This document shows, piece after piece, positions 2 to 53,000 of a stretch of 64,000 nt of DNA (position 1 is the first letter of the stretch; each line of letters begins with the position of its first letter). This stretch comes from Geminisphaera colitermitum TAV2. GTDB lineage: Bacteria > Verrucomicrobiota > Verrucomicrobiia > Opitutales > Opitutaceae. The stretch covers positions 1-64,000 of the forward strand of contig NZ_ABEA03000135.1 in NCBI RefSeq assembly GCF_000171235.2, given 5' to 3'. Both the position numbers and the translations under genes were made by a program. Under the pieces are notes generated by a model. That model saw only the letters and a program-made list of their open reading frames with translations. It was not told where the DNA came from and did not search any database.

Positions 2-1318
2 TTATTTAGTGAATACGCCGGGCGGAGTGATTTCAGCGGGGACGGCATTCGCGCCGGGGAGCGTATTGACGAGCACTTTGTCGCCGCGATGGTTGAAAAC
101 CGGGTGATGGCAGATGCGGAGGGGATTTCGTCCTGGCGGTTCACGGTCGCCGATGAACTTGGGGAGTTCGATGCGCTGGATGGTTTGCCCGGTGCGTTTG
201 GAGATGAAGAGAACCGCGCCGCCCGTAGGCGTGCCTTCGTCGGTGACGATGAGATCGGAATCGAGCGGACTGACGCTTGGGTGCCCGCCGCTGGCGTGGT
301 CGCTGAGTTTGCGGTAACCGGTGCCGTCATAGCGGACTTCGGCGAGGCACTGGCGGGAGGGGTTTTGCGGGTCGGGTCCGTAGCCGATGAGGTGCTCGGC
401 GTCGGGTTGCCAGCTCCAGTGGACGCCGCGGCGTTCGTAGCTGAAATCAAGGGCGACGTGGATGTCGCGCAGGGTGCGGTCGGCAGTGAGGACGTAGGTG
501 ATTTTGGGTTCGCCACGTCCTTTTACGACGCAGTGGTTGCCGAAGAAAAAGAGGAAGCGGCGGGCGTTGCGCGTCCAGCGTGCGCAGTAGAGCATGAGCG
601 TGGCGGCATCGCCGTTGCCGAGTCGGGCAGCGAGTTCGCTGTCGGTGTTGCGTATGCGGTCGCGGGTGGCGGCGGGGAGTTTTTGAAGGACATCGTTGAT
701 GCTGAGTCGCAGCCGGGCAACAGGGGCATTTGGGATTTGGGATTTGAAATTTGGGATTTCGAGAGGGGGGGGGGGGGGGGGGGGTGGTGGAAAACTGTAT
801 TCAAAAAGTCCGTGTTTGTCGCGGGCTTGAAAGGGAACGGGGGCGGTGTCGGGTTTGTAGAGTCCGTCGCCGTAACCGGCGGCATAGAGCATGCCGAGGA
901 GTCCGGAGAGAATGGGTTCGCCGTCGGGGGGGGCGCCTTCCATGTCGCCTTCAATCTCGGTGGTGACGCCGGTGGCGAGGTCGTGGCGGCGGATGCGGGG
1001 CGCGGTGAGGCTGCCGCCTTGGAAATAAACAGCGCGGGCGTCGGGCGACCAGGTTTGCCAGTATCCGGTGTGCCAATACGCCTCGTTGACGGGGCCGGCG
1101 GGGAAACGGTTTTGGATGGCGCGGTGTCCGCTGGCATCGGCGGGGCCGAGGACGATGACTTCGCCGGTGCGGGTGGCGAGGTCGGCTCCGGAGAGAAGCA
1201 GGCGGTCGGAGCCGTCGGGCGCGTAGGGGCAGAGCGTGTAGTAGCTGTGGAGGCTCCAGCGGTCGGAGATGGGAAGCGGGCGAATGGTGGAGGGGGCGTT
1301 GGTGGCGTTGGCAGGCAT
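2..1318 (-). CDS. Beta-propeller protein, oligogalacturonate-lyase-like
   Basis: Encodes 438 residues with no signal peptide. Repeated propeller-blade fragments are visible (WSPDARAVYF near residue 90, WSWQPDAEHLIGYG near 300, a final HPVFNHRGDKVLV), as in TolB/oligogalacturonate-lyase-type propellers. It is a homologue in style and size of the protein at 15355-16620, and both lie beside an IclR regulator, so a role in uronic-acid or pectin-fragment metabolism is inferred. A run of nine prolines near residue 180 is encoded by a 20-base homopolymer, followed by an interspersed-repeat peptide (EIPNFKSQIPN); both look like insertions into a loop. The stop lies at the window edge, so the gene is complete. 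Catalytic residues were not identified. Confidence 0.7.
   Translation of the reverse strand: MPANATNAPSTIRPLPISDRWSLHSYYTLCPYAPDGSDRLLLSGADLATRTGEVIVLGPADASGHRAIQNRFPAGPVNEAYWHTGYWQTWSPDARAVYFQGGSLTAPRIRRHDLATGVTTEIEGDMEGAPPDGEPILSGLLGMLYAAGYGDGLYKPDTAPVPFQARDKHGLFEYSFPPPPPPPPPLEIPNFKSQIPNAPVARLRLSINDVLQKLPAATRDRIRNTDSELAARLGNGDAATLMLYCARWTRNARRFLFFFGNHCVVKGRGEPKITYVLTADRTLRDIHVALDFSYERRGVHWSWQPDAEHLIGYGPDPQNPSRQCLAEVRYDGTGYRKLSDHASGGHPSVSPLDSDLIVTDEGTPTGGAVLFISKRTGQTIQRIELPKFIGDREPPGRNPLRICHHPVFNHRGDKVLVNTLPGANAVPAEITPPGVFTK
727..784. repeat. Interspersed repeat plus G20 tract inside the propeller gene
   Basis: Positions 727-761 hold tandem variants of the unit TTTGGGATT, and 765-784 is an uninterrupted run of 20 G (C on the coding strand). 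Read on the coding strand it gives nine prolines followed by the KSQIPN-type peptide. A related KSQISN peptide occurs inside ispG at about 52245-52275, so this is a dispersed repeat, not native protein sequence. Confidence 0.8.
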
Positions 1319-10294: not shown

Positions 10295-11662
10295 ATGAAA
10301 ACGACCCGCATCATCACTCTCGCGGCCCTGCTGTTCGCCAGCCTCGGGCTATTCGCTCTCAACGCCAGCGCCGCCAGTTACACATGGGCGAACCAAGCCA
10401 CTGGTGGCGACTGGAACACCGCCACCAACTGGACTCCAAACGGCGTGCCCAATGCTGACGACGCCGATGTTTCCGTCACCACGACCACCAGTGGACAAAA
10501 CATCTATCTAGGCAACGGCACCACCACCGTTCGCAACCTCTCCGCGACAACGAACGGCGGCACCAACCTCACCTTCAGTTCACCCAACACCGAGGGAAGC
10601 GCCACGCTGGCCATCACCGGAACCCTGACAAAAAACAATGGCAGCAGCTCCATCAACTTTGCCGACGACAACACGGGCCGTTACCTCAACCTCACGATCA
10701 ACAGGCTCAACTTTAACACCAACGGCAATTTTTACTTTGGCCGCAACGATGGCGGACGCCGGATCAACTCGCTCGCCATCAGCACGCTTGATATGGGCAA
10801 CAACAACAGCGGCTCACCAACCTCCATTCTGGCCTTCAACGCCACGCAAAACTACTCCCTTGGCGCCGTCACTTTCAGCGGCTCGAACACCAAAAACGTT
10901 TACCTTATCAATAACAACTCCACCGGCTACAGTCGCACGGCGACCATCAAAAGCCTCACGCAAACGAGTGGCACGGCTGCGACAATCTATGGTTCACAAC
11001 GCGCTGGTTCCAGCGGTTCCAACGCCGCCATGCTCAAAATCGACACCGATGCCGCCACCGCTTTCACCGCCACCACGATCCTTGCCGACGGCACCGGCGG
11101 CACGCTCGCCCTTCTCAAGACCGGCGCGGGCAAACAAACCCTCACCGGCGTGCTTACCCACACTGGTGGCACGCAAGTTGACGCGGGCACGCTTGTCATC
11201 ACCGGCAGCCTTGCCGCAACTGGCGACCTGACCGTTGCGAAAGACGCAACGTTTGTCGCGGGCGCGGCTCTGACCCTGAACGACGCTGCTTTCGCAAGCG
11301 GAGCCGTCCTCGGCCTCGACCTTGGAGCCAATGCAAAACTCAACCTCTCCGGCGACCTTACGCAAAGCGGCTCCGGCGAAGCCACCTTCGTGATTGATTT
11401 CCAGAGCACGGGAATCCTTGACCAAACCTACACACACCTCCTTTCCGTTGCCGGTGCCAACGCCTTCGCCGGTGCCACGCTCACCTACAAAAACTTCGGA
11501 ACACAAAACCTCTCCGGCACCTTGAGCATGAACGAACTGATCGGGAATTTTATCGTCACCTCCGGCGCCATTCCCGAACCCGCCGCGTGGGTTCTGCTCC
11601 TTGGCGCGGGCGTATTTTCTTTCGCCGCACTGCGCCGCTATCTGTACCGCGGGCTAATGTAG
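10295..11662 (+). CDS. PEP-CTERM surface protein with beta-strand repeats
   Basis: 455 residues. The signal peptide ends around NASAAS. The body begins with the SYTWANQATGGDWNTATNW type motif seen in autotransporter-associated beta-strand repeat proteins, and later has a typical KTGAGKQTLTGVLTHTGGTQV repeat (shortened: KTGAGKQTLTG). The C-terminus is a PEP-CTERM sorting signal: IPEPAAWVLLLGAG, a transmembrane stretch, then Arg residues. It is predicted to be processed by the exosortase encoded at 41430-43091. Function is structural or adhesive by family analogy. Confidence 0.88.
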   Translation: MKTTRIITLAALLFASLGLFALNASAASYTWANQATGGDWNTATNWTPNGVPNADDADVSVTTTTSGQNIYLGNGTTTVRNLSATTNGGTNLTFSSPNTEGSATLAITGTLTKNNGSSSINFADDNTGRYLNLTINRLNFNTNGNFYFGRNDGGRRINSLAISTLDMGNNNSGSPTSILAFNATQNYSLGAVTFSGSNTKNVYLINNNSTGYSRTATIKSLTQTSGTAATIYGSQRAGSSGSNAAMLKIDTDAATAFTATTILADGTGGTLALLKTGAGKQTLTGVLTHTGGTQVDAGTLVITGSLAATGDLTVAKDATFVAGAALTLNDAAFASGAVLGLDLGANAKLNLSGDLTQSGSGEATFVIDFQSTGILDQTYTHLLSVAGANAFAGATLTYKNFGTQNLSGTLSMNELIGNFIVTSGAIPEPAAWVLLLGAGVFSFAALRRYLYRGLM

Positions 11663-11758
11663 AATGAAGAATGATCAGGAGCATTTGCGCTCGTGGATTG
11701 GACATTCCGCATTCCACATTCTGCATTCTGCATTCTACATTGGTCGCCCCCCCCCCCC
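11659..11758. repeat. GAATGCAGAATG-type interspersed repeat ending in C12
   Basis: From the stop of the PEP-CTERM gene to 11746 the sequence is made of variants of CATTCTGCATTC, including a stretch near both ends that can pair (AGAATGAAGAATG against CATTCTGCATTCT). It is followed directly by 12 C (11747-11758), which end 12 bases before the ATG at 11771. The whole gap is this repeat, so no other gene fits. Confidence 0.8.
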
Positions 11759-18737: not shown

Positions 18738-18754
18738 GGGGGGGGGGGGGGGGG
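18738..18754. repeat. G17 tract between hydrolase and deacetylase genes
   Basis: Seventeen G starting nine bases after the stop of the GH113-like gene, inside the 134-base spacer before the deacetylase. It is non-coding. It could affect transcription read-through or form a G-rich structure in the transcript. Confidence 0.9.
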
Positions 18755-26100: not shown

Positions 26101-29100
26101 CCCACAACAACTATACAGGCGGAACGTCCATCAAGGCAGGCGGCATGATTGTTGGCGATGGTAACGTTCACGATGGCACAAGCGGAGACATCTCCATTGG
26201 TGCTAAACGCGTTGCTGGCACAGGCACCCCCCTGGGCATAGGCACCCTCTCTATTTCCGACAGCGGCCAAGGCCTTGCCATTCGTATTGCTGATGGCCAC
26301 TCCGCTTACCTGACCGACGCCAACTTACTCATCAAAGACGGCACAGGCATCCGCCTCGGCTCGTCCACCGCGCCCGGTGCCATCCTCCCCGGAGAACCCG
26401 CCTCCTGGGGTAACAACGCCCGCCTTGTTATCGGCACGCCAGATGGCACCGCGCAACGCATCGGACGCGCAGTTGACGACAACCTCAGTGTACTCGGCAT
26501 CCTTCGCACCGTCTCTGATACCAGTGCCATCGTTAAAACCGGCACTGGTGTAACCACTGCGGCTGTCAATTTCGACACCGCCAACCTCATCATCGAACAA
26601 GGCACGCTTGCACTCGACGCAACCAACCTCCTACGCGACACCCGCAAGCTCACCCTTGACGGCGGCACCCTTTCCCTTGGTGGCCACAACCAGACCCTTG
26701 CCGCCGGTTCGATCCTCGACATGACCAACAGTTCCCGCATCGACTTCGGCAACACCCCCTACGACACCAAACTCACCTTCTCCGACCTCGCGCTCGTCGA
26801 TACCGGCAGCAGCTACCTCTTTGGTTCCACTGGCAATGCCGACCTCATGTTTGACGTCACCAACTGGAACGGCCTCGCCAGCGGCAACGGCGTTGACCAA
26901 CTCCTCTTCACGAACTTCTCCGGCGAAGTTGATAAACGCATCCGCAACATCACTTTCAACTACGGCACCAGCGGAGCCAAAGTCATTGCCCTGGGCAACG
27001 GCCTCTACGAACTCGTTGCCACCTCGGTTACCTACGAATGGCAAGGCAGCTCCTCTTGGGAAGTGGACGGCGGCTGGACCCGCCCCGGTAACCCCAGCAA
27101 AATCGGCGACTCTGCCCTCTTTGGAGACCTCGATCCGGAGCTTAACGGCAAAACCATCAACACTGGCACCACCAAACAACTCGGTGCCATTGTCGTATCC
27201 AACACCATGGGAGCCGCCTTCACCATTGGTAACCCCGGCAGCCAGCTCACACTCCAAGGCGAACTCCCTGAAGACGACGTCCACATTCGCATCACTCCCG
27301 AATCCAACGCCTCCCCCACCATCGCCGCCAACCTGATCCTTGCCAACAACCTCCGCGTTAACCACGAAGGCACTGGCATTGCCACCCTCTCCGGCCAGAT
27401 CACCGACGCCGGCGTCGGCATCAACGCCCCAGCCAGCCTCACCAAACAAGGCGACGGCATCCTCCGCATCACAGCCGGAACCAGCACCTACCGCGGCGGC
27501 ACCATCCTCGAAGACGGAACACTCCAAATCGGAGCCAGCAGCTCCATCTCCGGCGGAGCCGTGACCAACGGCCCCCTTGGCACCGGCCCCCTCACCGTGA
27601 CCAACGGCACCCTCGAAGCCATCAACGCCGCCCGCACCCTGCACAACGCCATCGCACTCTCCGGCGACATCGCCATTGCCGGCCCCCGCGCCCTCACGCT
27701 CCAAGGTGCTGGCAACAGCGCCGCCACCCTTGCCGCCAGCACCACCCTCGACATCGCCAACCCCACCGGACGCCTCTCCATCGGCACCGGCTACGGAGCC
27801 AACGGACTTACCGGCGCAGCCAACGCCCGCCTCACCAAAACCGGCGCAGGCCTCCTCGATCTCCAAGGAGCCAACACCTATGCAGGCGGCACCACCGTGC
27901 AACAAGGCACCCTGCGCCTCGGCCACGGCTCTGCCGCAGGCACTGGCGACATCGCCCTTGCCGCCAACACCACCCTCAACCTCGACTTCTCCAACGGCAC
28001 CATCGCCAACACCCTTACCGGCACCGGCAGCACCAACATCCTGGGCCAGAACATCGCCCTCGCCACCAACGCTGCCAGCTACACCGGCAACTGGCACGTA
28101 GCCGCCAACGCCAGTGCCACCATTACCGACACCAACAACCTCGGCGCCGCCAGCACGCTCAACCTCAACGCCCCCACCGCGCGCCTCACCATCGCCCCCA
28201 CCGCCACCGGCAACTACACCTTTGCCAACACCCTCAAAGGCAACGGCACCCTCGCCGTCAACCTCGCCAACGCCACCGACACCTTCACCCTCGCCAACAA
28301 CCCCGCCACCTCCGCCTTCAACGGCACCCTCCGCCTCGACCGCTCCACCTTCGCCCTCGACGCTGCCGCCAGCACCCGCCTTGCCAACGCCACCCTCTCC
28401 CTCGGCACCGGCAACACCACCACCGTTACCGACGGCATCCAAACCACTGCCAACCTCACCCTCGACGGCGGCAAACTCATCTACCCCGGAGCCACCCTCC
28501 CCTCATCGACGATCTCGACCGGTATCATCAACACCACTACACTCGCGCTCAACAGCGGCAGCGTGCAACTCGACATCCGCGCTACCCCCCCCCCCCCCTC
28601 CTCAACGACCGACGCCAACCTCCTCGAACAAGACGACCGCGTCCTCGTGACCCTCATCAACGCCAACACCGTCACAGGCAACGCCGCCAACCTCACCCTC
28701 CTCGACGCCACCGGCACCGCCATCACCACCCCCCGCACCCAAGCCATCACCCAAACAAACACCCACGTCGCCAACGCCATCTACGACTACTCACTCGCCA
28801 CCACCAACGGCACTGGCTCCAACGGCCTCTACCTCAACTACGGCCTCACCCAAATCGACATCCTCAACGGCAAAGCGCTCACCCTCACCGAACGCGCCGG
28901 AGCCACAGGCAACGCCGCCGACATGAACGCCCTCATCACCGGCACCGGCGACCTCAACATCAACGCCACCAACACCATCTCCCTCTCCCGCCAAAACACC
29001 CACACCGGCGAAACCCAAATCACCAACGGTATCCTGCGCGCCAATACCACCGACATCATCGCCAACAGCACCCGCGTCACCCTCGCCAACACCGGCACCA

Positions 29101-38723: not shown

Positions 38724-39395
38724 CTATTCGTTGGCGTAGATATTATCAGCATTTTTATCATCGGAGGCGGTTGGTAAATCCCCGTTTGTGCCAGGTTGTG
38801 TGAAGGTCCCGTTCGGACCGGCTGAAAATAGAATATAAGATGGGTTTTTCCATGTACCGGGACTGGAACTGTTTTTATAGGAATACAGATAACGTTTTCC
38901 CCACGGGTCGAGGAAGGCATTGGCAACGGAAATTGTATTGCCTGATGTTGGCAAATTGGCAGTCTCCAGCGTGAACTTGCCAAGTTCCACAAAACTACGC
39001 CCGTCTATGGGATCGCCTTTGGGGCCAAGTTTTCCGGCAAGCGAATTGAAAAATTTACCCGATACACTGGTTTCGTTTAATGTAGCTGTAATTTCAGTCG
39101 CCGCGATACGATTTGTTTGCGGATAATCCCCATATTGCCGTTTATAGTTTTCCAAGGCAACGGACAGGGCGGCGAGTTCGGCTTTGGCTTGGTTAATGGC
39201 GGCGCGTTCATTGACGCCTTTTGTGATGCCGAAGGTGATGCCAGCCAAAATTCCGATGATTGCGATGACGGTAAGCAGTTCAATCAAGGTAAAGGCTCGG
39301 CGGGGGGGGGGGGGGAGGGGAGTTGAACGTTGACCGCTGAATGCTAAACGCTGAAGTGGCGGAGTGAGGCGATGATGGGAGAATTTTCGAAGCAT
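38724..39395 (-). CDS. GspG-like pseudopilin with repeat-derived leader
   Basis: 223 residues from the ATG at 39395; an ATG at 39494 would add 33 more residues and is less likely. The prepilin site is RRA/FTLIELLTVIAIIGILAG at residues 32-50. The leader before it is unusually long (34 residues) and is largely encoded by an interspersed repeat (LQRLAFSGQRST) and a C14 tract (PLPPPP). The body has ALENYKRQYGDYPQT and DPWGKRYLYSY, as in GspG. It is the first gene of the cassette transcript. Confidence 0.8.
   Translation of the reverse strand: MLRKFSHHRLTPPLQRLAFSGQRSTPLPPPPRRAFTLIELLTVIAIIGILAGITFGITKGVNERAAINQAKAELAALSVALENYKRQYGDYPQTNRIAATEITATLNETSVSGKFFNSLAGKLGPKGDPIDGRSFVELGKFTLETANLPTSGNTISVANAFLDPWGKRYLYSYKNSSSPGTWKNPSYILFSAGPNGTFTQPGTNGDLPTASDDKNADNIYANE
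39302..39352. repeat. G14 tract plus short interspersed repeat in pseudopilin leader
   Basis: Fourteen G (39302-39315) border variants of TTGAACGTTGACC / CTGAATGCTAAACGCTGAA (39320-39352). On the coding strand this is repeat then C14, placed just before the prepilin cleavage site. Confidence 0.8.
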
Positions 39396-39639
39396 AGGGG
39401 GAAAGCTGAACAGGGAAAGGCATCCGTTTTCGGGGAGCAATCGCAAAGATGGGCTTGGAGGGGGAAAAGGCATGGGTGACGTTGGGTAAGACACGCGGAC
39501 GGGGGAAAAGTTAACCGGAAAGCTGAAAAGTCAGGACCTGAAAATCCATTTTTTAACCATTAATGCACACTAATGGACTCTGATGGAAAACAGATTCACT
39601 GAAGTTACGTGACGGAGGATTGCAGAAAAAACGCGCGCC

Positions 39640-41399: not shown

Positions 41400-41420
41400 C
41401 CCCCCCCCCCCCCCCCCCCC
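41400..41420. repeat. C21 tract after the exosortase gene
   Basis: The longest homopolymer of the window, ending nine bases before the stop codon end of the exosortase gene (41430) in the space before the PEP-CTERM gene. Non-coding. It lies upstream of the promoter-like region at 41294-41340. Confidence 0.9.
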
Positions 41421-46175: not shown

Positions 46176-46982
46176 ATGTCCGACGCTCCTCCCGACGCCT
46201 CCTCCAACCTATCCACAACGACGACGCTCTCCCCCCCCGCGCCGCCCGTTCACGTGGCGATCATCATGGACGGCAACGGACGCTGGGCCCGCCAGCGCGG
46301 CCTGCCCCGCCTCGAAGGCCACCGCCGCGGAGCCGACGCCGTGCGGGCCGCCATCGAAGGCGCGCAAGCGCAAGGCATCCGTTATCTCACCCTCTACGCC
46401 TTTTCCTCGGAAAACTGGAAACGTCCCCAGGATGAAGTGGGCGGTTTGATGAATCTCCTGGAGCATTTCCTCAAACGCGAAACCAAGACCCTCGTCAAAA
46501 ATCGCATCCGCCTGCGCACCATTGGACGGACCGACGCCCTCCCCCCCCCCGTCCGCGCGCAACTCGCCGCCGCCATTGAGGCCACCGCGCCGTTTACCGA
46601 ACACACCCTCATCCTCGCGCTCAACTACGGCTCGCGTATTGAACTCACCGATACGGTTCGCCGGATCGCCGTCGATGCCGCTGCGGGCACGCTCACGCCC
46701 GATGCCATTACGTGGGACGCCATTGCCGCCCGTCTCGACACTGCGGACATTCCCGATCCCGACCTTGTCATTCGCACGTCGGGCGAGATGCGCATCAGCA
46801 ATTTTCTGCTCCTGCAAGCCGCCTATGCGGAGTTTATTTTTACGCCCGTCCTCTGGCCTGATTTTCGAGAAACCGACCTCGCCGCCGCCGTTGCCGAATA
46901 CCACCGCCGCGAACGCCGCTTCGGCTGCACCGGCGAGCAAGCGCGGGACGGAAAGGCTGAAAGCCTGAAGGCTGAAGGCTGA
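46176..46982 (+). CDS. uppS: Undecaprenyl diphosphate synthase
   Basis: 268 residues. It makes the lipid carrier for cell wall and LPS synthesis by adding isopentenyl units. Signatures are complete: HVAIIMDGNGRWA with catalytic Asp32, SSENW at 77-81, LNYGSR near 149 and DLVIRTSGEMRISNFLL at 196-212. A C10 tract encodes LPPP at 122-125, in frame. The last residues (KAESLKAEG) are encoded by a short interspersed repeat, so the natural C-terminus was probably replaced. First gene of the uppS-cdsA-dxr-rseP-ispG run. Confidence 0.95.
   Translation: MSDAPPDASSNLSTTTTLSPPAPPVHVAIIMDGNGRWARQRGLPRLEGHRRGADAVRAAIEGAQAQGIRYLTLYAFSSENWKRPQDEVGGLMNLLEHFLKRETKTLVKNRIRLRTIGRTDALPPPVRAQLAAAIEATAPFTEHTLILALNYGSRIELTDTVRRIAVDAAAGTLTPDAITWDAIAARLDTADIPDPDLVIRTSGEMRISNFLLLQAAYAEFIFTPVLWPDFRETDLAAAVAEYHRRERRFGCTGEQARDGKAESLKAEG
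46541..46550. repeat. C10 tract in uppS
   Basis: Encodes Pro-Pro-Pro in a surface loop; in frame. Confidence 0.9.
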
Positions 46983-48070: not shown

Positions 48071-49237
48071 ATGAAACGCGTCGTCCTCCTCGGAGCCACC
48101 GGATCGATCGGAGAAAACACCCTCGCCGTCCTTCGTGCCCACCCCGACAAACTCCGACTCATTGGCGTCGGAGCCTGTCGCAACGCGCAAAAACTTGCCG
48201 CCATCTGCCGCGAATTTTCCGTCCCCCACGCCGCCCTCACAGACCCCGTCGCCGCCAATGCATCCCCCCCCCCCCCCCCCCTCACAAAACTCCACACCGG
48301 CCCCGATTCCCTCTCCATCCTGGCAACGCTCCCCGAAGCCGACATCGTTCTCGTCGCCGTCGTTGGCACCGCCGGGCTTGCCCCCGCGCTCGCCGCCCTT
48401 GCCGCCGGCAAAGACCTCGCCCTCGCCTCCAAAGAAATTCTCGTCCTCGCCGGCCCCTTCGTCCTCGCCGCCGCGAAAGCCAGCGGAGCCCGACTCCTCC
48501 CCGTGGACAGCGAGCACAACGCCGTTTTCCAATGTCTCACCGGCCACTCTGCCGACGACGTCCGCCACATCCACCTCACCGCCTCTGGAGGAGCCTTCCG
48601 CGACTGGCCCGCTGCGCGCCTCGCCCACGCCACTCCCGCCGACGCCCTCCGGCATCCCAACTGGAGCATGGGCCCCAAGATCACCGTCGATTCCGCCACG
48701 CTCGCCAACAAAGGACTCGAACTCATCGAAGCCCAAATCCTCTTCGGCCTCCGCCCCGATCAATGTCACGCCGTCCTCCACCCGCAAAGCATCGTGCATG
48801 CGCTCGTTGAATACACCGACGGCTCAATCATGGCGCAAATGACCCCCCCCTCCATGACCTTCCCCATCCAGCACGCCCTGCTTCACCCCGACCGCGCCCC
48901 CGACGCCGCCCGCACCACGCTCGATTTCACCCAAACCCTCTCGCTCGACTTCCGCCCCATCGACCCCGCCCGCTATCCCATGCTCGGCCTCGCCCGCGCC
49001 GCCATGCACGCAGGAGGCGCGGCCCCTGCGGTTTACAACGCCGCCAACGAAATCGCCGTTGCCGCCTTCCTCGCCGGTCGGCTCCCCTACCTTGCGATTC
49101 CCCAAGTCGTGGAGCAGACTCTCTCCACGATCCCGATCGATATGATGACCACGCCCACCGAACTTTCCGCCGTCCTTGCGGCCGATGCCGAAGCCCGCCG
49201 AATCGCGGAGCAAAAGGCTGAAGGGCTGAAAGCCTGA
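48071..49237 (+). CDS. dxr: 1-deoxy-D-xylulose 5-phosphate reductoisomerase
   Basis: 388 residues. It performs the committed step of the MEP isoprenoid pathway. The NADPH-binding GATGSIG is at residues 8-14, and PVDSEHNAVFQ, ASGGAFRDW and HPNWSMGPKITVDSATL hold the metal and substrate ligands. A C18 tract encodes five prolines near residue 66 (NASPPPPPLT), a C8 run lies later; both are in frame. The C-terminus (EQKAEGLKA) is encoded by the AGGCTGAAGG repeat. Confidence 0.95.
   Translation: MKRVVLLGATGSIGENTLAVLRAHPDKLRLIGVGACRNAQKLAAICREFSVPHAALTDPVAANASPPPPPLTKLHTGPDSLSILATLPEADIVLVAVVGTAGLAPALAALAAGKDLALASKEILVLAGPFVLAAAKASGARLLPVDSEHNAVFQCLTGHSADDVRHIHLTASGGAFRDWPAARLAHATPADALRHPNWSMGPKITVDSATLANKGLELIEAQILFGLRPDQCHAVLHPQSIVHALVEYTDGSIMAQMTPPSMTFPIQHALLHPDRAPDAARTTLDFTQTLSLDFRPIDPARYPMLGLARAAMHAGGAAPAVYNAANEIAVAAFLAGRLPYLAIPQVVEQTLSTIPIDMMTTPTELSAVLAADAEARRIAEQKAEGLKA
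48264..48281. repeat. C18 tract in dxr
   Basis: Eighteen C inside the NADPH-binding domain coding region; in frame here. A one-base slip would end the protein early. Confidence 0.92.
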
Positions 49238-49357: not shown

Positions 49358-50845
49358 ATGTCCATCACCACCGTCCTCTCACTCCTCTGGGCCCTCGTCC
49401 TCATGGCCCTCTTTTTTGGCGGCTCGATCTTCGTTCACGAACTCGGCCACTTCCTCGCCGCCCGCCGCCGCGGGGTGAAAGTGGACCGCTTCTCCATCGG
49501 ATTCGGCCCCAAAATCTTCGCCTGGACCGGCAAAGACGGCGTCGAATACCGCCTCTCCTGGATACCCCTCGGCGGCTACGTTGCCCTCCCGCAACTCGCC
49601 GACATGCGCGGCATTGAGGGCGAACCCACAAGCGTTGCTTCCGATTTGGATGTTGGACGTTCGACGTTGGACGTTGGATGTTCGGGGCGAAGCCCCGCCC
49701 CCCCCCCCTCCTATTCCACCAAAATGCTCGTCTTCGTCGCCGGAGCCGTCTGCAACATCATCTTCGCCTTCGCCCTCGCCTCCATCCTCTGGATCGCCGG
49801 ACTCCCGCAGGAGGAACCCACCCAAATCGGCTACGTCGCCAGCACCCTCGTCACGACCGATGGCAACAAAATCCCCTCTCCCGGTGCCACCGCCGGCCTC
49901 CGCCCGGGCGACATCATCACCCACGTTGACGGCAAAGCCGTGTCCCGCTTCCGCGAAATCGAAGACCTCGTCATCCTCGGCTCTGGACGCACCCCCGACG
50001 GCTCCCCCGAAGTCGCGCTCACCGTCCTGCGCGACAACACCCCGCTCACCCTCAGCCTCATCCCCGCCTACGTCGGCCCCGAACGCATTCGCTCCATCGG
50101 CATCGCCCCCTCCGCCAACCCCGCCGTGGACAGCTTCTCCGCCGACAGCGCCGCGCGCGACGCCGGCCTGCGTATCGGCGACATCATTACACACATCGAC
50201 GACCGCGCCGCCTACTATGTCGGCTCCATCTCCGACTACCTCCGCGAACACGGAGCCAAGCCCGTCCGCGTCTCCGGCCTGCGTGACGGCCAGCCCTTCA
50301 CCCTCACCGTCACCCCGCGTCTCGTTAACGACGAAAACACCGGCCAGCCCGTCCCCCGCATCGGCGTTCTCCTCAACCCCCACATCCTCAACGCCCCCCT
50401 CGTCCACATCCCCCCGCACGAACAAATCGCGCGCCACATACGCACCACCTGGCGCACGATCGTCAGCCTCGTGAGCCCCAAGTCCGACATCGGCGTTTCC
50501 AAACTCAGCGGCCCCGTCGGCATCGCCCACGTCTTCATCCGCCTCGCCCAAGTCGATCTGCGCAGCGTCATCTGGTTCACCGTTCTCCTCAACATCAACC
50601 TCGCCATCTTCAACCTCCTTCCCATCCCCGTCCTCGACGGCGGGCACATGATGTTTGCCACCATTGGAAAACTCCGTGGCCGCCCCCTTCCCATGAAATT
50701 CGTCATGAACACCCAGGCCGTTTTCATGGCCCTGCTCCTCACGATGATCCTCTACGTGTCCTTCTTCGACATCCGCCGCGTCAAACGCGACATCATGCCC
50801 GACACACCCGCCGTCGAACAACCTGCGGACGCTCCAGCCAAATAA
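49358..50845 (+). CDS. rseP: Site-2 membrane metalloprotease, RseP/RIP type
   Basis: 495 residues. The zinc motif HELGH is at 27-31 in the first transmembrane region, and LLPIPVLDGGHMM with the third metal ligand lies near residue 420. Two PDZ-like domains are in between (GLRPGDIITHVDG near 175; GLRIGDIITHIDD near 268). It would carry out regulated intramembrane proteolysis in envelope stress signalling. Residues about 92-120 are an interspersed-repeat insertion (SDLDVGRSTLDVGCSG plus a poly-C peptide) just before the second transmembrane segment; in frame. Confidence 0.92.
   Translation: MSITTVLSLLWALVLMALFFGGSIFVHELGHFLAARRRGVKVDRFSIGFGPKIFAWTGKDGVEYRLSWIPLGGYVALPQLADMRGIEGEPTSVASDLDVGRSTLDVGCSGRSPAPPPSYSTKMLVFVAGAVCNIIFAFALASILWIAGLPQEEPTQIGYVASTLVTTDGNKIPSPGATAGLRPGDIITHVDGKAVSRFREIEDLVILGSGRTPDGSPEVALTVLRDNTPLTLSLIPAYVGPERIRSIGIAPSANPAVDSFSADSAARDAGLRIGDIITHIDDRAAYYVGSISDYLREHGAKPVRVSGLRDGQPFTLTVTPRLVNDENTGQPVPRIGVLLNPHILNAPLVHIPPHEQIARHIRTTWRTIVSLVSPKSDIGVSKLSGPVGIAHVFIRLAQVDLRSVIWFTVLLNINLAIFNLLPIPVLDGGHMMFATIGKLRGRPLPMKFVMNTQAVFMALLLTMILYVSFFDIRRVKRDIMPDTPAVEQPADAPAK
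49643..49708. repeat. TTGGATGTTGGACG repeat plus C11 inside rseP
   Basis: Variants of TTGGACGTTGGATG (49645-49683) are followed by a small hairpin (CGGGGCGAAGCCCCG) and 11 C (49698-49708). Together they form an in-frame insertion of about 28 codons. Confidence 0.85.
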
Positions 50846-50881: not shown

Positions 50882-53000
50882 ATGAACTATTGTTCATCCC
50901 GCTACGCCACCGTTCGCCGTTTCACGACCGAAGCCAAGGTCGGCGCCGTTGGCATCGGACACCAAAATCCGGTGCGCGTGCAGTCGATGACCACGACCAA
51001 CACGCAGGACGTCGAGGCGACCGTAAAACAATCCATCGCCCTCGCCGAAGTCGGTTGTGAAATCGTCCGCGTCACCGCGCCCAACCACGCCGCCGCCCGC
51101 GCCCTCAAGGACATCCGCAAAAAACTCACCGCCGCCGGCTTTGGGCACATCCCGCTCGTGGCCGACATCCACTTCCTGCCCTCCGCCGCGATGGAGGCCG
51201 TCGAGCACGTCGAAAAAATCCGCGTCAATCCCGGCAACTACGCCGACAAGAAAAAATTCGCCGTCAACGAGTATTCGGATGCCGAATACGACCGCGAACT
51301 TCAGCGCATTTACGAAGCCTTCACCCCGCTCGTTCTCCGCGCCAAAGCCCTTGGCCGCTCCCTTCGCATCGGCACCAACCACGGTTCCCTCTCCGACCGC
51401 ATCATGAACCGCTATGGCGACACCCCGCTTGGCATGGTCGAGAGCGCCCTTGAGTTCCTGCGCATCTGCGAAAGCCACAATTTCAAAAACATTGTGCTCT
51501 CGATGAAGGCGTCCAACCCCAAGGTCATGATCCAGGCCTACCGCCTTCTCGTCGCCCGCATGGATCAGGAAAACATGCACTACCCGCTCCATCTCGGCGT
51601 GACTGAGGCGGGCGACGGTGAAGACGGCCGCATAAAAAGCGCCATTGGCATCGGCAGCCTCCTCCACGACGGACTCGGCGACACCATTCGCGTCTCCCTT
51701 ACCGAGGACAGCGTTTACGAAATCCCCGTCGCCCAAAAACTCGCCGCCAAAGCCCACGCCATCTGGGCAAATGGTAGGGAGGCCTCTCCGAGGCCTCCGT
51801 CGTCGTACCAGTTGAAGGAATGCGAAACGCATAAAAATTCGGCGCGCAATTGCGGAGGCCTCGGAGAGACCTCCCTACCGAATACTGCCTCCTCGACCAC
51901 CGATAGCATCGACCCCTACCACTACACCCGCCGCGAAATCCTCCCGCAAAAACTAGCCTGCGGAATCCCTGTCGGCCCCGACCATCCCCCGCGTGTCTTC
52001 ACCCGTGACGTTTACCCTCCCCCCCCCCCCCCCTCTGCCGACACTCCCATCGAAGGCCGCATCATCGCCATCCCTGACACCGCCACCCTAACCGCCTTCG
52101 TGGCGCGGGCTTTTTCTGCCAAACGCCCACACCCCTTTCGTGGCGCGGGCGTCCCGCCCGCAACCCTTGCCCCTCAGCCAAAAACCGCCGACCCCCTGCC
52201 GCCCCCATTCGTCCTCGACCTCGCCCCATCCATCACGCTCGCCGAACTCAAATCTCAAATCTCCAACCCCGAACTCCCGCCGTTAATCCTCCTCCGCTCT
52301 TTCACCTCCTCAAACACCGACGCCACCGTGCTGCGCGAATTTGCCGCCTACGCTCACGCGCAGCACCACACCCTCGCCATCGCAACAACCGCCGACGCCC
52401 TTGCCACGCTCGCGCCCACACTCCGCACGCTTCCACCCGACCAACGTCTCATCTTTACCCTCCCCCCCCCCCCCCCCCCCCATTTCGCATCCCCAAGATT
52501 TTCTTTCGCGACTCCTCGACGCCTCGATCCTCACCGGCGCTCTCCTTTGCGACGGCATTGGAGACATTGTGAGCATTGAAACTGACCCCGACCCCACCCG
52601 CGCCACCAAACTCGCCTACAACATCCTGCAAGGCGCTGGAGCCCGCGTATCCAAAACCGAATACGTAGCCTGTCCTTCCTGCGGACGCACCCTCTTTGAT
52701 TTGCAAACCACCACGCAACGCATTCGTGAAAAAACCGGCCACCTCAAAGGCGTGAAACTCGCCATCATGGGCTGCATCGTGAATGGCCCCGGCGAAATGG
52801 CGGATGCCGATTTTGGATACGTCGGAGGCGCACCGGGGAAAATCAACCTCTACGTCGGCAAAACCTGCGTCCAATACAACATCCCCCAAGCCGAAGCCGA
52901 CGCCCGCCTCATCGCCCTCATCAAAGAACACGGCAAGTGGATGGAGCCCGCCGATGCCGTGCCCGAAGCTCCCGTCCCGGTGCCTTCTGGTTCAGGCTGA
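50882..53000 (+). CDS. ispG: 4-hydroxy-3-methylbut-2-enyl diphosphate synthase, frame broken at C20
   Basis: This is the long form of IspG (about 705 codons if joined), acting late in the MEP pathway. The TIM-barrel domain (residues 1 to about 290) is intact and typical ([53 protein letters not shown]). The iron-sulfur domain ([33 protein letters not shown]) is encoded at about 52485-53000 but in the next frame. The switch is at the C20 tract 52462-52481: the first frame runs to a stop ending at 52579, the second to 53000. One C fewer or two more would join them. The insert region 51760-52490 contains three different repeats and a C15 tract. Confidence 0.88.
51773..51879. mobile_element. GGTAGGGAGGCC-family element inside ispG
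   Basis: A 107-base element with the inverted termini GGTAGGGAGGCC / GGCC-variant CTCCCTACC, matching the intergenic copy at 3669-3844. It is translated in frame as part of the IspG insert (start [15 protein letters not shown]). It lies at the end of the TIM-barrel domain. Confidence 0.85.
52019..52033. repeat. C15 tract in ispG
   Basis: Fifteen C encoding prolines in the inter-domain insert ([13 protein letters not shown]); in frame. Confidence 0.92.
52099..52163. repeat. GCGGGCGTCCCGCCCGC repeat copies in ispG
   Basis: CGTGGCGCGGGC occurs at 52099-52110 and again at 52139-52150, the latter continuing as GTCCCGCCCGCAA to 52163. It is the complement of the unit at 39829-39850 between other genes. 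It is translated in frame. Confidence 0.8.
52462..52481. repeat. C20 tract at which the ispG frame changes
   Basis: Twenty C. Upstream the good frame is [10 protein letters not shown], downstream it is [20 protein letters not shown] in the +1 frame. This is the only coding tract in the window at which the frame is not continuous. Confidence 0.93.

What the first reader, a model, noticed from the sequence alone, without database searches (positions are those of the whole stretch)
727..784. Poly-C tracts sit at the end of interspersed repeats
At least four places show a short dispersed repeat joined to a C-run: 727-784 (propeller gene), 11659-11758 (intergenic), 39302-39352 (pseudopilin leader) and 49643-49708 (rseP). 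This suggests the tracts arrive with, or grow on, the repeat, for example as a homopolymer tail left by the insertion process. The mechanism is speculative.
Basis: inference. Interest (0 to 1): 0.68.

Follow-up and report, generated by a model that had tools for sequence, protein, structure and literature searches.

The report
Poly-C tracts beside heptad repeats
This termite-gut-type bacterium (Opitutaceae) carries about 1,400 long runs of C across its genome, even inside essential genes; a real but small share sit next to a short 7-bp-period repeat, so the runs look like a genome-wide slippage phenomenon rather than tails left by inserting repeats.

Summary
The four sites are real: each joins a 7-bp-period repeat to a C/G run of 11-20. 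The association exceeds chance: 18 of 41 heptad arrays lie within 60 bp of a run >=8, versus 3.0 expected with genic/intergenic matching. Genome-wide, at least 27 loci read array - stem-loop - C-run and 15 read C-run - array, but only 1 reads array - G-run, so the two share a strand. Other dispersed palindromes show only weak association.

The 'tail' reading fails as a general explanation. Only 17 of 226 runs >=10 have an array within 200 bp; 23 of 41 arrays have no run; the run lies on either side (13 vs 8); the 34 period-7 arrays sampled in the congener TAV5 have no run >=8 beside them.

The larger fact is about 1,390 C/G runs >=11 in 5.67 Mb, with essentially none expected. TAV5 has very few, and A/T runs are normal. 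C lies on the sense strand, frame is kept in 77 of 88 coding cases, and essential genes are invaded (uppS, dxr, rseP, ispG). I favour C/G-specific slippage expansion of C-rich sense-strand seeds, with heptad+hairpin elements a separate repeat that shares tolerant sites and may locally favour growth. The cause of the C/G-specific instability is unknown.

The parts
728..759 (+). period-7 array (ATTTGGG)4.6
765..784 (-). C20 tract (G on + strand), inside ORF 2-1318(-), C on the coding strand
11703..11743 (+). period-7 array (CATTCTG)5.6 between a PEP-CTERM/PATR gene and the next gene
11747..11758 (+). C12 tract, 3 nt 3' of the array
39302..39315 (-). C14 tract (G on + strand) just upstream of the N-methylation motif of a T2SSG-like pseudopilin, ORF 38724-39494(-)
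39322..39356 (+). degenerate heptad series GTTGAAC GTTGACC GCTGAAT GCTAAAC GCTGAAG
   Evidence: read by eye; below the scan threshold
49646..49682 (+). heptad element body (TTGGACG)5.3, GTTSGAY family
49683..49697 (+). stem-loop CGGGGC(GAA)GCCCCG at the 3' end of the heptad body
49698..49708 (+). C11 tract; aligns to Pro codons CTGCCGCCGCCC in the TAV5 orthologue; in frame in rseP (Peptidase_M50 + PDZ)
46541..46550 (+). C10 tract in uppS (undecaprenyl diphosphate synthase); same length as TAV5 CTGCCTCCCG, i.e. made by substitutions
48264..48281 (+). C18 tract in dxr, in frame, no array nearby
52019..52033 (+). C15 tract in ispG (GcpE), no array nearby
52462..52481 (+). C20 tract in ispG at a 146-bp shortening relative to TAV5; reading frame breaks here in the deposited sequence
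41400..41420 (+). C21 tract, longest in the window, no array nearby
18738..18754 (-). C17 tract (G on + strand), no array nearby
28585..28598 (+). C14 tract inside a 3331-aa ORF, in frame, no array nearby

Best explanation
Two separate things overlap. (A) In this species, short C-runs on the C-rich sense strand have expanded genome-wide past about 8 nt, mainly by slipped-strand length changes, specifically at C/G and not A/T. They survive where length change is tolerated (intergenic leaders, protein linkers, poly-Pro stretches), and selection keeps most of them in frame. (B) Independently there is a dispersed element of about five 7-bp units (consensus ATTGGAT-GTTGGAT-GTTCGAC-GTTGGAT-GTTGGAC) usually ending in GTTC plus a GC stem-loop with a GAA/GCA/AAA-type loop and a different stem in many copies. 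It lies in the same tolerant places; where its 3' stem-loop abuts C-rich sense-strand DNA, the C-run grows unusually often. Shown: number, length, strand, frame, C/G specificity, association, strand concordance. Inferred: slippage as the growth mechanism, selection on frame, and the direction of cause between element and run. Unknown: why only C/G runs and only this species.
For: About 1,390 runs >=11 in 5.67 Mb (6243 11-mer minus 4853 12-mer hits); in the 756-kb sample runs reach 27 while a second-order Markov model gives a maximum of 10, and A/T runs stop at 10 as expected. TAV5 1.6 Mb: 75 runs >=8, 11 >=10, so the state is lineage-specific. Frame kept in 77/88 coding tracts, 27/36 of those >=12 (P=4e-7 vs 1/3). 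C on sense strand in 97 of 119 intragenic and 63 of 75 co-directional intergenic tracts, similar to the strand bias of short C-runs in both genomes, so it follows from C-rich seeds. Orthologue alignments show C-rich seeds at several expanded sites (TAV5 TCCCCCCG -> C14, ACGTCCCCCCCTCC -> C14) and short tracts made by substitutions at fixed length. Element/run association 18/41 vs 3.0 matched; REP-like palindromes only 18/119 vs 8.9. Element anatomy.
Against: No read-level or strain-level data show that these tracts actually change length. Several long tracts have no C-rich seed in TAV5 and sit in lineage-specific indels, so insertion cannot be excluded for them. The base 5' of long runs is T in 75-85% versus about 30% next to runs of 3-5, which simple slippage does not explain. 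Twelve heptad bodies without a run are not in C-rich surroundings (31% C downstream), which weakens 'the element prefers C-rich targets'. The GTTSGAY family has no counterpart in TAV5 (0 hits), so the test against a run-free copy of the very same element is weak.
Confidence: 0.58

Rival explanations
1. The C-run is part of the mobile repeat: a poly-C tail added to the 3' end of the copied repeat (after its stem-loop) during insertion.
For: At least 27 loci have array - stem-loop - (CCCT)C-run in one order and strand, with different stems (20 of 27 with stem >=5 vs 2.0 in shuffles); strand concordance 42:1.
Against: Only 17/226 runs >=10 have an array; 15 loci have the run on the other side; arrays without runs are in the majority; at rseP the run aligns to Pro codons present in TAV5; the 34 period-7 arrays sampled in TAV5 have no run >=8 beside them.
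Confidence: 0.1
2. Selected contingency-locus system: tracts maintained for phase variation.
For: Length range 8-21 overlaps known switching tracts (PMC6321876: poly-G/C of 8 or more switch in C. jejuni); some tracts are out of frame in the deposited sequence (11/88); many lie just before start codons.
Against: About 1,390 tracts >=11 against a median of 20 phase-variable tracts per C. jejuni genome (PMC6321876); they lie in essential housekeeping genes (uppS, dxr, rseP, ispG); 88% of coding ones are in frame.
Confidence: 0.12
3. Substitution hotspot: G-run followed by T mutates to G (GnT hotspot), extending runs without indels.
For: A immediately 5' of long C-runs is depleted to 3-6%, as PMC12344412 would predict; several short tracts arose at fixed length.
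Against: Aligned TAV5-G000 sites show no excess A->C next to C-runs of 4 (1/105) or 3 (25/457); long tracts involve length changes.
Confidence: 0.07
4. Sequencing or assembly artefact (for example poly-G base calls).
For: In G002, G003 and G056 the poly-C hits I could inspect are at contig ends and look artefactual. Frame breaks at the ispG and priA tracts may be length-call errors.
Against: In G000 tracts are internal, 37 bridge orthologous flanks, keep frame in 77/88, and sit with C on the gene's sense strand, which a sequencer cannot know.
Confidence: 0.06

Closest known systems
Homopolymeric phase-variation tracts (Campylobacter poly-G, Neisseria G/C tracts)
   Same: C/G homopolymers of 8 or more, expected to slip; in ORFs and upstream regions (PMC6321876, PMC5084427).
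   Different: Here about 70 times more tracts than the C. [quoted passage not shown]
Heptameric repeats of Xanthomonas and Nostoc (GGGAATC / GGGGA(T/C)T)
   Same: Dispersed degenerate 7-bp-unit arrays, mainly intergenic, many copies, often about four units (PMC4692102).
   Different: Different words, not G4-forming; the GTTSGAY family usually ends in a stem-loop with variable stem; several word families in one genome.
REP-like palindromes of the same genome (GCGGGCGGGACGCCCGC etc.)
   Same: Dispersed short GC stem-loops in intergenic regions and linkers.
   Different: Only weak association with C-runs (18/119 vs 8.9 expected).
GnT mutational hotspot (PMC12344412)
   Same: Predicts G/C-run extension and the depletion of A at the 5' edge of C-runs.
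   Different: No substitution excess seen here at aligned sites; long tracts involve indels.

Membership tests
SSR phase-variation (contingency) tract | Homopolymer of at least 7-8 C/G beyond chance | tested here: met
SSR phase-variation (contingency) tract | Tract length differs between cells or strains | not testable with these tools
   no reads or second strain of the species held
SSR phase-variation (contingency) tract | Concentrated in surface or modification genes with ON/OFF frames | tested here: inconclusive
   77/88 in frame, present in essential genes, but no full annotation was compared
Insertion-tail (retroposon-like) origin of C-run | C-run always on the same end of the repeat | tested here: not met
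   13 vs 8 in the sample; 27 vs 15 loci genome-wide
Insertion-tail (retroposon-like) origin of C-run | Target-site duplication around repeat + tract | tested here: inconclusive
   none seen at rseP against TAV5; divergence of about 20% limits the test
Heptameric repeat arrays | Period 7 over-represented against neighbouring periods | tested here: met
GnT hotspot product | Excess A->C at the 5' edge of C-runs against an orthologue | tested here: not met

The most novel reading that the evidence does not exclude
This lineage has lost or changed a factor that specifically stabilises C/G homopolymers (candidates: a MutL without its C-terminal domain, which is missing from the assembly, or a replication/repair helicase or polymerase change), so that more than a thousand C-runs grow across the proteome, and stem-loop-ended heptad elements act as local starting points for growth.
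Probability: 0.25. Interest if true: 0.78.

Novelty: new variant of a known kind. Interest (0 to 1): 0.6.

Why it matters
If the tracts are real and slip, this would be a bacterium whose whole housekeeping proteome, including the MEP isoprenoid pathway, is exposed to poly-C frameshifting on a scale far above known phase-variable genomes, with A/T runs untouched. Comparing it with its run-poor congener TAV5 would make the question 'what keeps C/G runs short in bacteria?' directly testable. The 42:1 strand concordance with stem-loop-ended repeats is a concrete lead on what seeds tract growth.

Tried and rejected
GnT substitution: rejected as main cause. General dispersed palindromes as partners: weak. 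Other 'poly-C-rich' relatives: in G002, G003 and G056 the hits inspected are contig-end runs, so not counted as parallels. Mismatch-repair loss: MutS is intact; the MutL N-terminal domain is at the end of contig C11 and the C-terminal domain is not found in G000, but A/T runs are not expanded, so simple MMR loss does not fit by itself; kept as a lead. IMG/VR locus L253 looked like an independent genome carrying array + stem-loop without a run, but is 100% identical to G000 and was dropped as independent evidence. Literature searches found no report of this in Opitutaceae in the held library; the main TAV2 paper is not held.

Full report
Where it is. The window is contig C91 of a 5.67-Mb, 225-contig genome (G000). 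Its only congener in the set, G001, has a 7,317,842-bp chromosome, the exact size of Opitutaceae strain TAV5 (PMC4358385). G000 is therefore a close relative of the termite-gut TAV strains; that it is TAV2 is my inference only.

Observation. All four places show a 7-bp-period repeat next to a C/G run: (ATTTGGG)n + G20, (CATTCTG)n + C12, a degenerate GTTGAAC-type series + G14, and (TTGGACG)n + stem-loop + C11. Period 7 is by far the most over-represented tandem period in the genome (27.8 arrays per Mb; other periods at or below 4 apart from 14 and 21).

Is the join more than chance? Yes. Strict arrays: 16 of 28 within 60 bp of a run >=8, 1.4 expected, maximum 5 in 200 random placements. Adding the GTTNRAY arrays and matching for genic/intergenic position: 18 of 41 against 3.0, none of 20,000 simulations reached it. 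In the densest class (co-directional gaps of 60-500 bp) the chance is 0.143, i.e. about 6 of 41. As a specificity control, 119 copies of six REP-like palindrome families have 18 near runs against 8.9 matched.

Whole-genome anatomy of the main repeat. The word GTTSGAY three times in a row occurs 164 times (overlapping hits) in G000, 0 times in TAV5 and at most once in any of the other genomes searched. With a C-run >=8 within 30 nt downstream it forms at least 27 distinct loci; upstream, 15 loci; with a G-run downstream, one locus (distinct loci counted by me from the listings; a G-run upstream was not searched). The body is usually five heptads with the third often GTTCGAC, followed by GTTC and a GC stem-loop: in the 27 listed C-run loci 20 have a perfect stem of 5 or more against 2.0 in shuffles, with 15 different stems and mostly GAA, GCA or AAA loops. 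A window of 26 nt after the arrays gives stems >=5 in 32% against 3% in control windows (an underestimate because part of the stem is often counted as a heptad).

But C-runs are mostly elsewhere. Subtracting 12-mer from 11-mer hits gives about 1,390 C/G runs >=11 in the genome. In 756 kb there are 226 runs >=10, and only 17 have an array within 200 bp. A second-order Markov model gives a longest C/G run of 10; observed lengths reach 27, with a shallow hump at 13-14. A/T runs end at 10, as expected. In 1.6 Mb of TAV5 there are only 11 runs >=10, and its 34 period-7 arrays, mostly of other words, have no run >=8 within 60 bp.

Nature of the runs. Coding-potential analysis finds 77 of 88 coding tracts in frame (27 of 36 for length >=12; P=4e-7 against one third). 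Of the 11 others, several lie at junctions between neighbouring genes, so true in-gene frame breaks are fewer. C is on the sense strand in 97 of 119 intragenic tracts and 63 of 75 between co-directional genes; short C-runs in both genomes have a similar bias, so orientation follows from C-rich sense strands. C-runs >=8 are about seven times denser between co-directional genes than in genes. Against TAV5, short tracts (8-11) often arose by substitutions at fixed length, while long tracts sit in lineage-specific length changes; several have C-rich seeds in TAV5, others have none. The window shows tracts in four neighbouring essential or housekeeping genes: uppS, dxr, rseP and ispG. In ispG the C20 tract coincides with a frame break and a 146-bp shortening; a PriA-like gene has a similar frame break at a C20 (gene name from a sequence motif, my reading). 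These may be wrong length calls, switching, or slippage-tolerant expression; the data cannot tell.

Mechanism. I take slipped-strand expansion of C-rich sense-strand seeds as most likely (about 0.58), with frame kept by selection, and the heptad + stem-loop element as a separate dispersed repeat that shares tolerant sites and, by position and strand, seems to favour run growth next to its 3' stem-loop. At rseP the C11 aligns to Pro codons present in TAV5, which argues that the run grew from host sequence beside the element and was not carried in by it; this is one case. The GnT substitution hotspot (PMC12344412) would explain why A is depleted 5' of runs, but aligned sites show no such excess. 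The strong T preference 5' of long runs remains unexplained.

Comparison with what is known. C/G homopolymers that slip are well known as phase-variation tracts: a median of 20 phase-variable tracts per C. [quoted passage not shown] in meningococci homopolymers of 8 or more are mostly variable (PMC5084427). Heptameric dispersed arrays are known in Xanthomonas and Nostoc (PMC4692102). What is unusual here is the number, the C-on-sense orientation, the occurrence in housekeeping genes, the C/G-only character, and the strand-locked company with stem-loop-ended heptad elements. I therefore file it as a new variant of a known kind, not as a demonstrated phase-variation system and not as an insertion tail.

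Limits. No reads, no second strain, a fragmented assembly, and sampled rather than complete sequence for most statistics. The missing MutL C-terminal domain may simply be an assembly gap.

Noticed in passing
window 50882-53000: ispG (GcpE) is split into two ORFs at the C20 tract (profile 1-246 in the first, 209-342 in the second), in an essential pathway gene.
   Followed up: partly
G000 C11:39797-40871 (L230): mutL runs off the contig end in its Pro-rich linker; its C-terminal domain is not found elsewhere in the assembly, while TAV5 and G003 have it. The gene next to mutL in TAV5 sits on another contig (C146, L251).
   Followed up: partly
G000 C50:18031 (L040): A PriA-like gene changes frame at a C20 tract.
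   Followed up: no
sampled G000 contigs and TAV5 stretches (L031-L050, L123-L222): REP-like palindromes (GCGGGCGGGACGCCCGC x23, GGAGGCCTCGGAGAGGCCTCC x20 in 756 kb) are abundant; TAV5 has partly the same and partly other families (CACGGGCTGGAAGCCCGTG x45 in 1.6 Mb).
   Followed up: partly
L123-L222 (TAV5): TAV5 has its own period-7 arrays with mostly different words (GGTTCAG, CATTCGT, GGAAGTTTGAAGTT), some next to stem-loops: the array class is shared in the genus while the words differ between species.
   Followed up: partly
G002, G003, G056 contig ends (L236, L240, L242, L247): Long poly-C/G runs at contig ends look like assembly or sequencing artefacts and inflate poly-C counts in these genomes.
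   Followed up: yes
all runs >=9 in the 756-kb sample: The base 5' of long C-runs is T in 75-85% (often CCCT), against about 30% for runs of 3-5; the 3' side is much less biased. No explanation found.
   Followed up: partly
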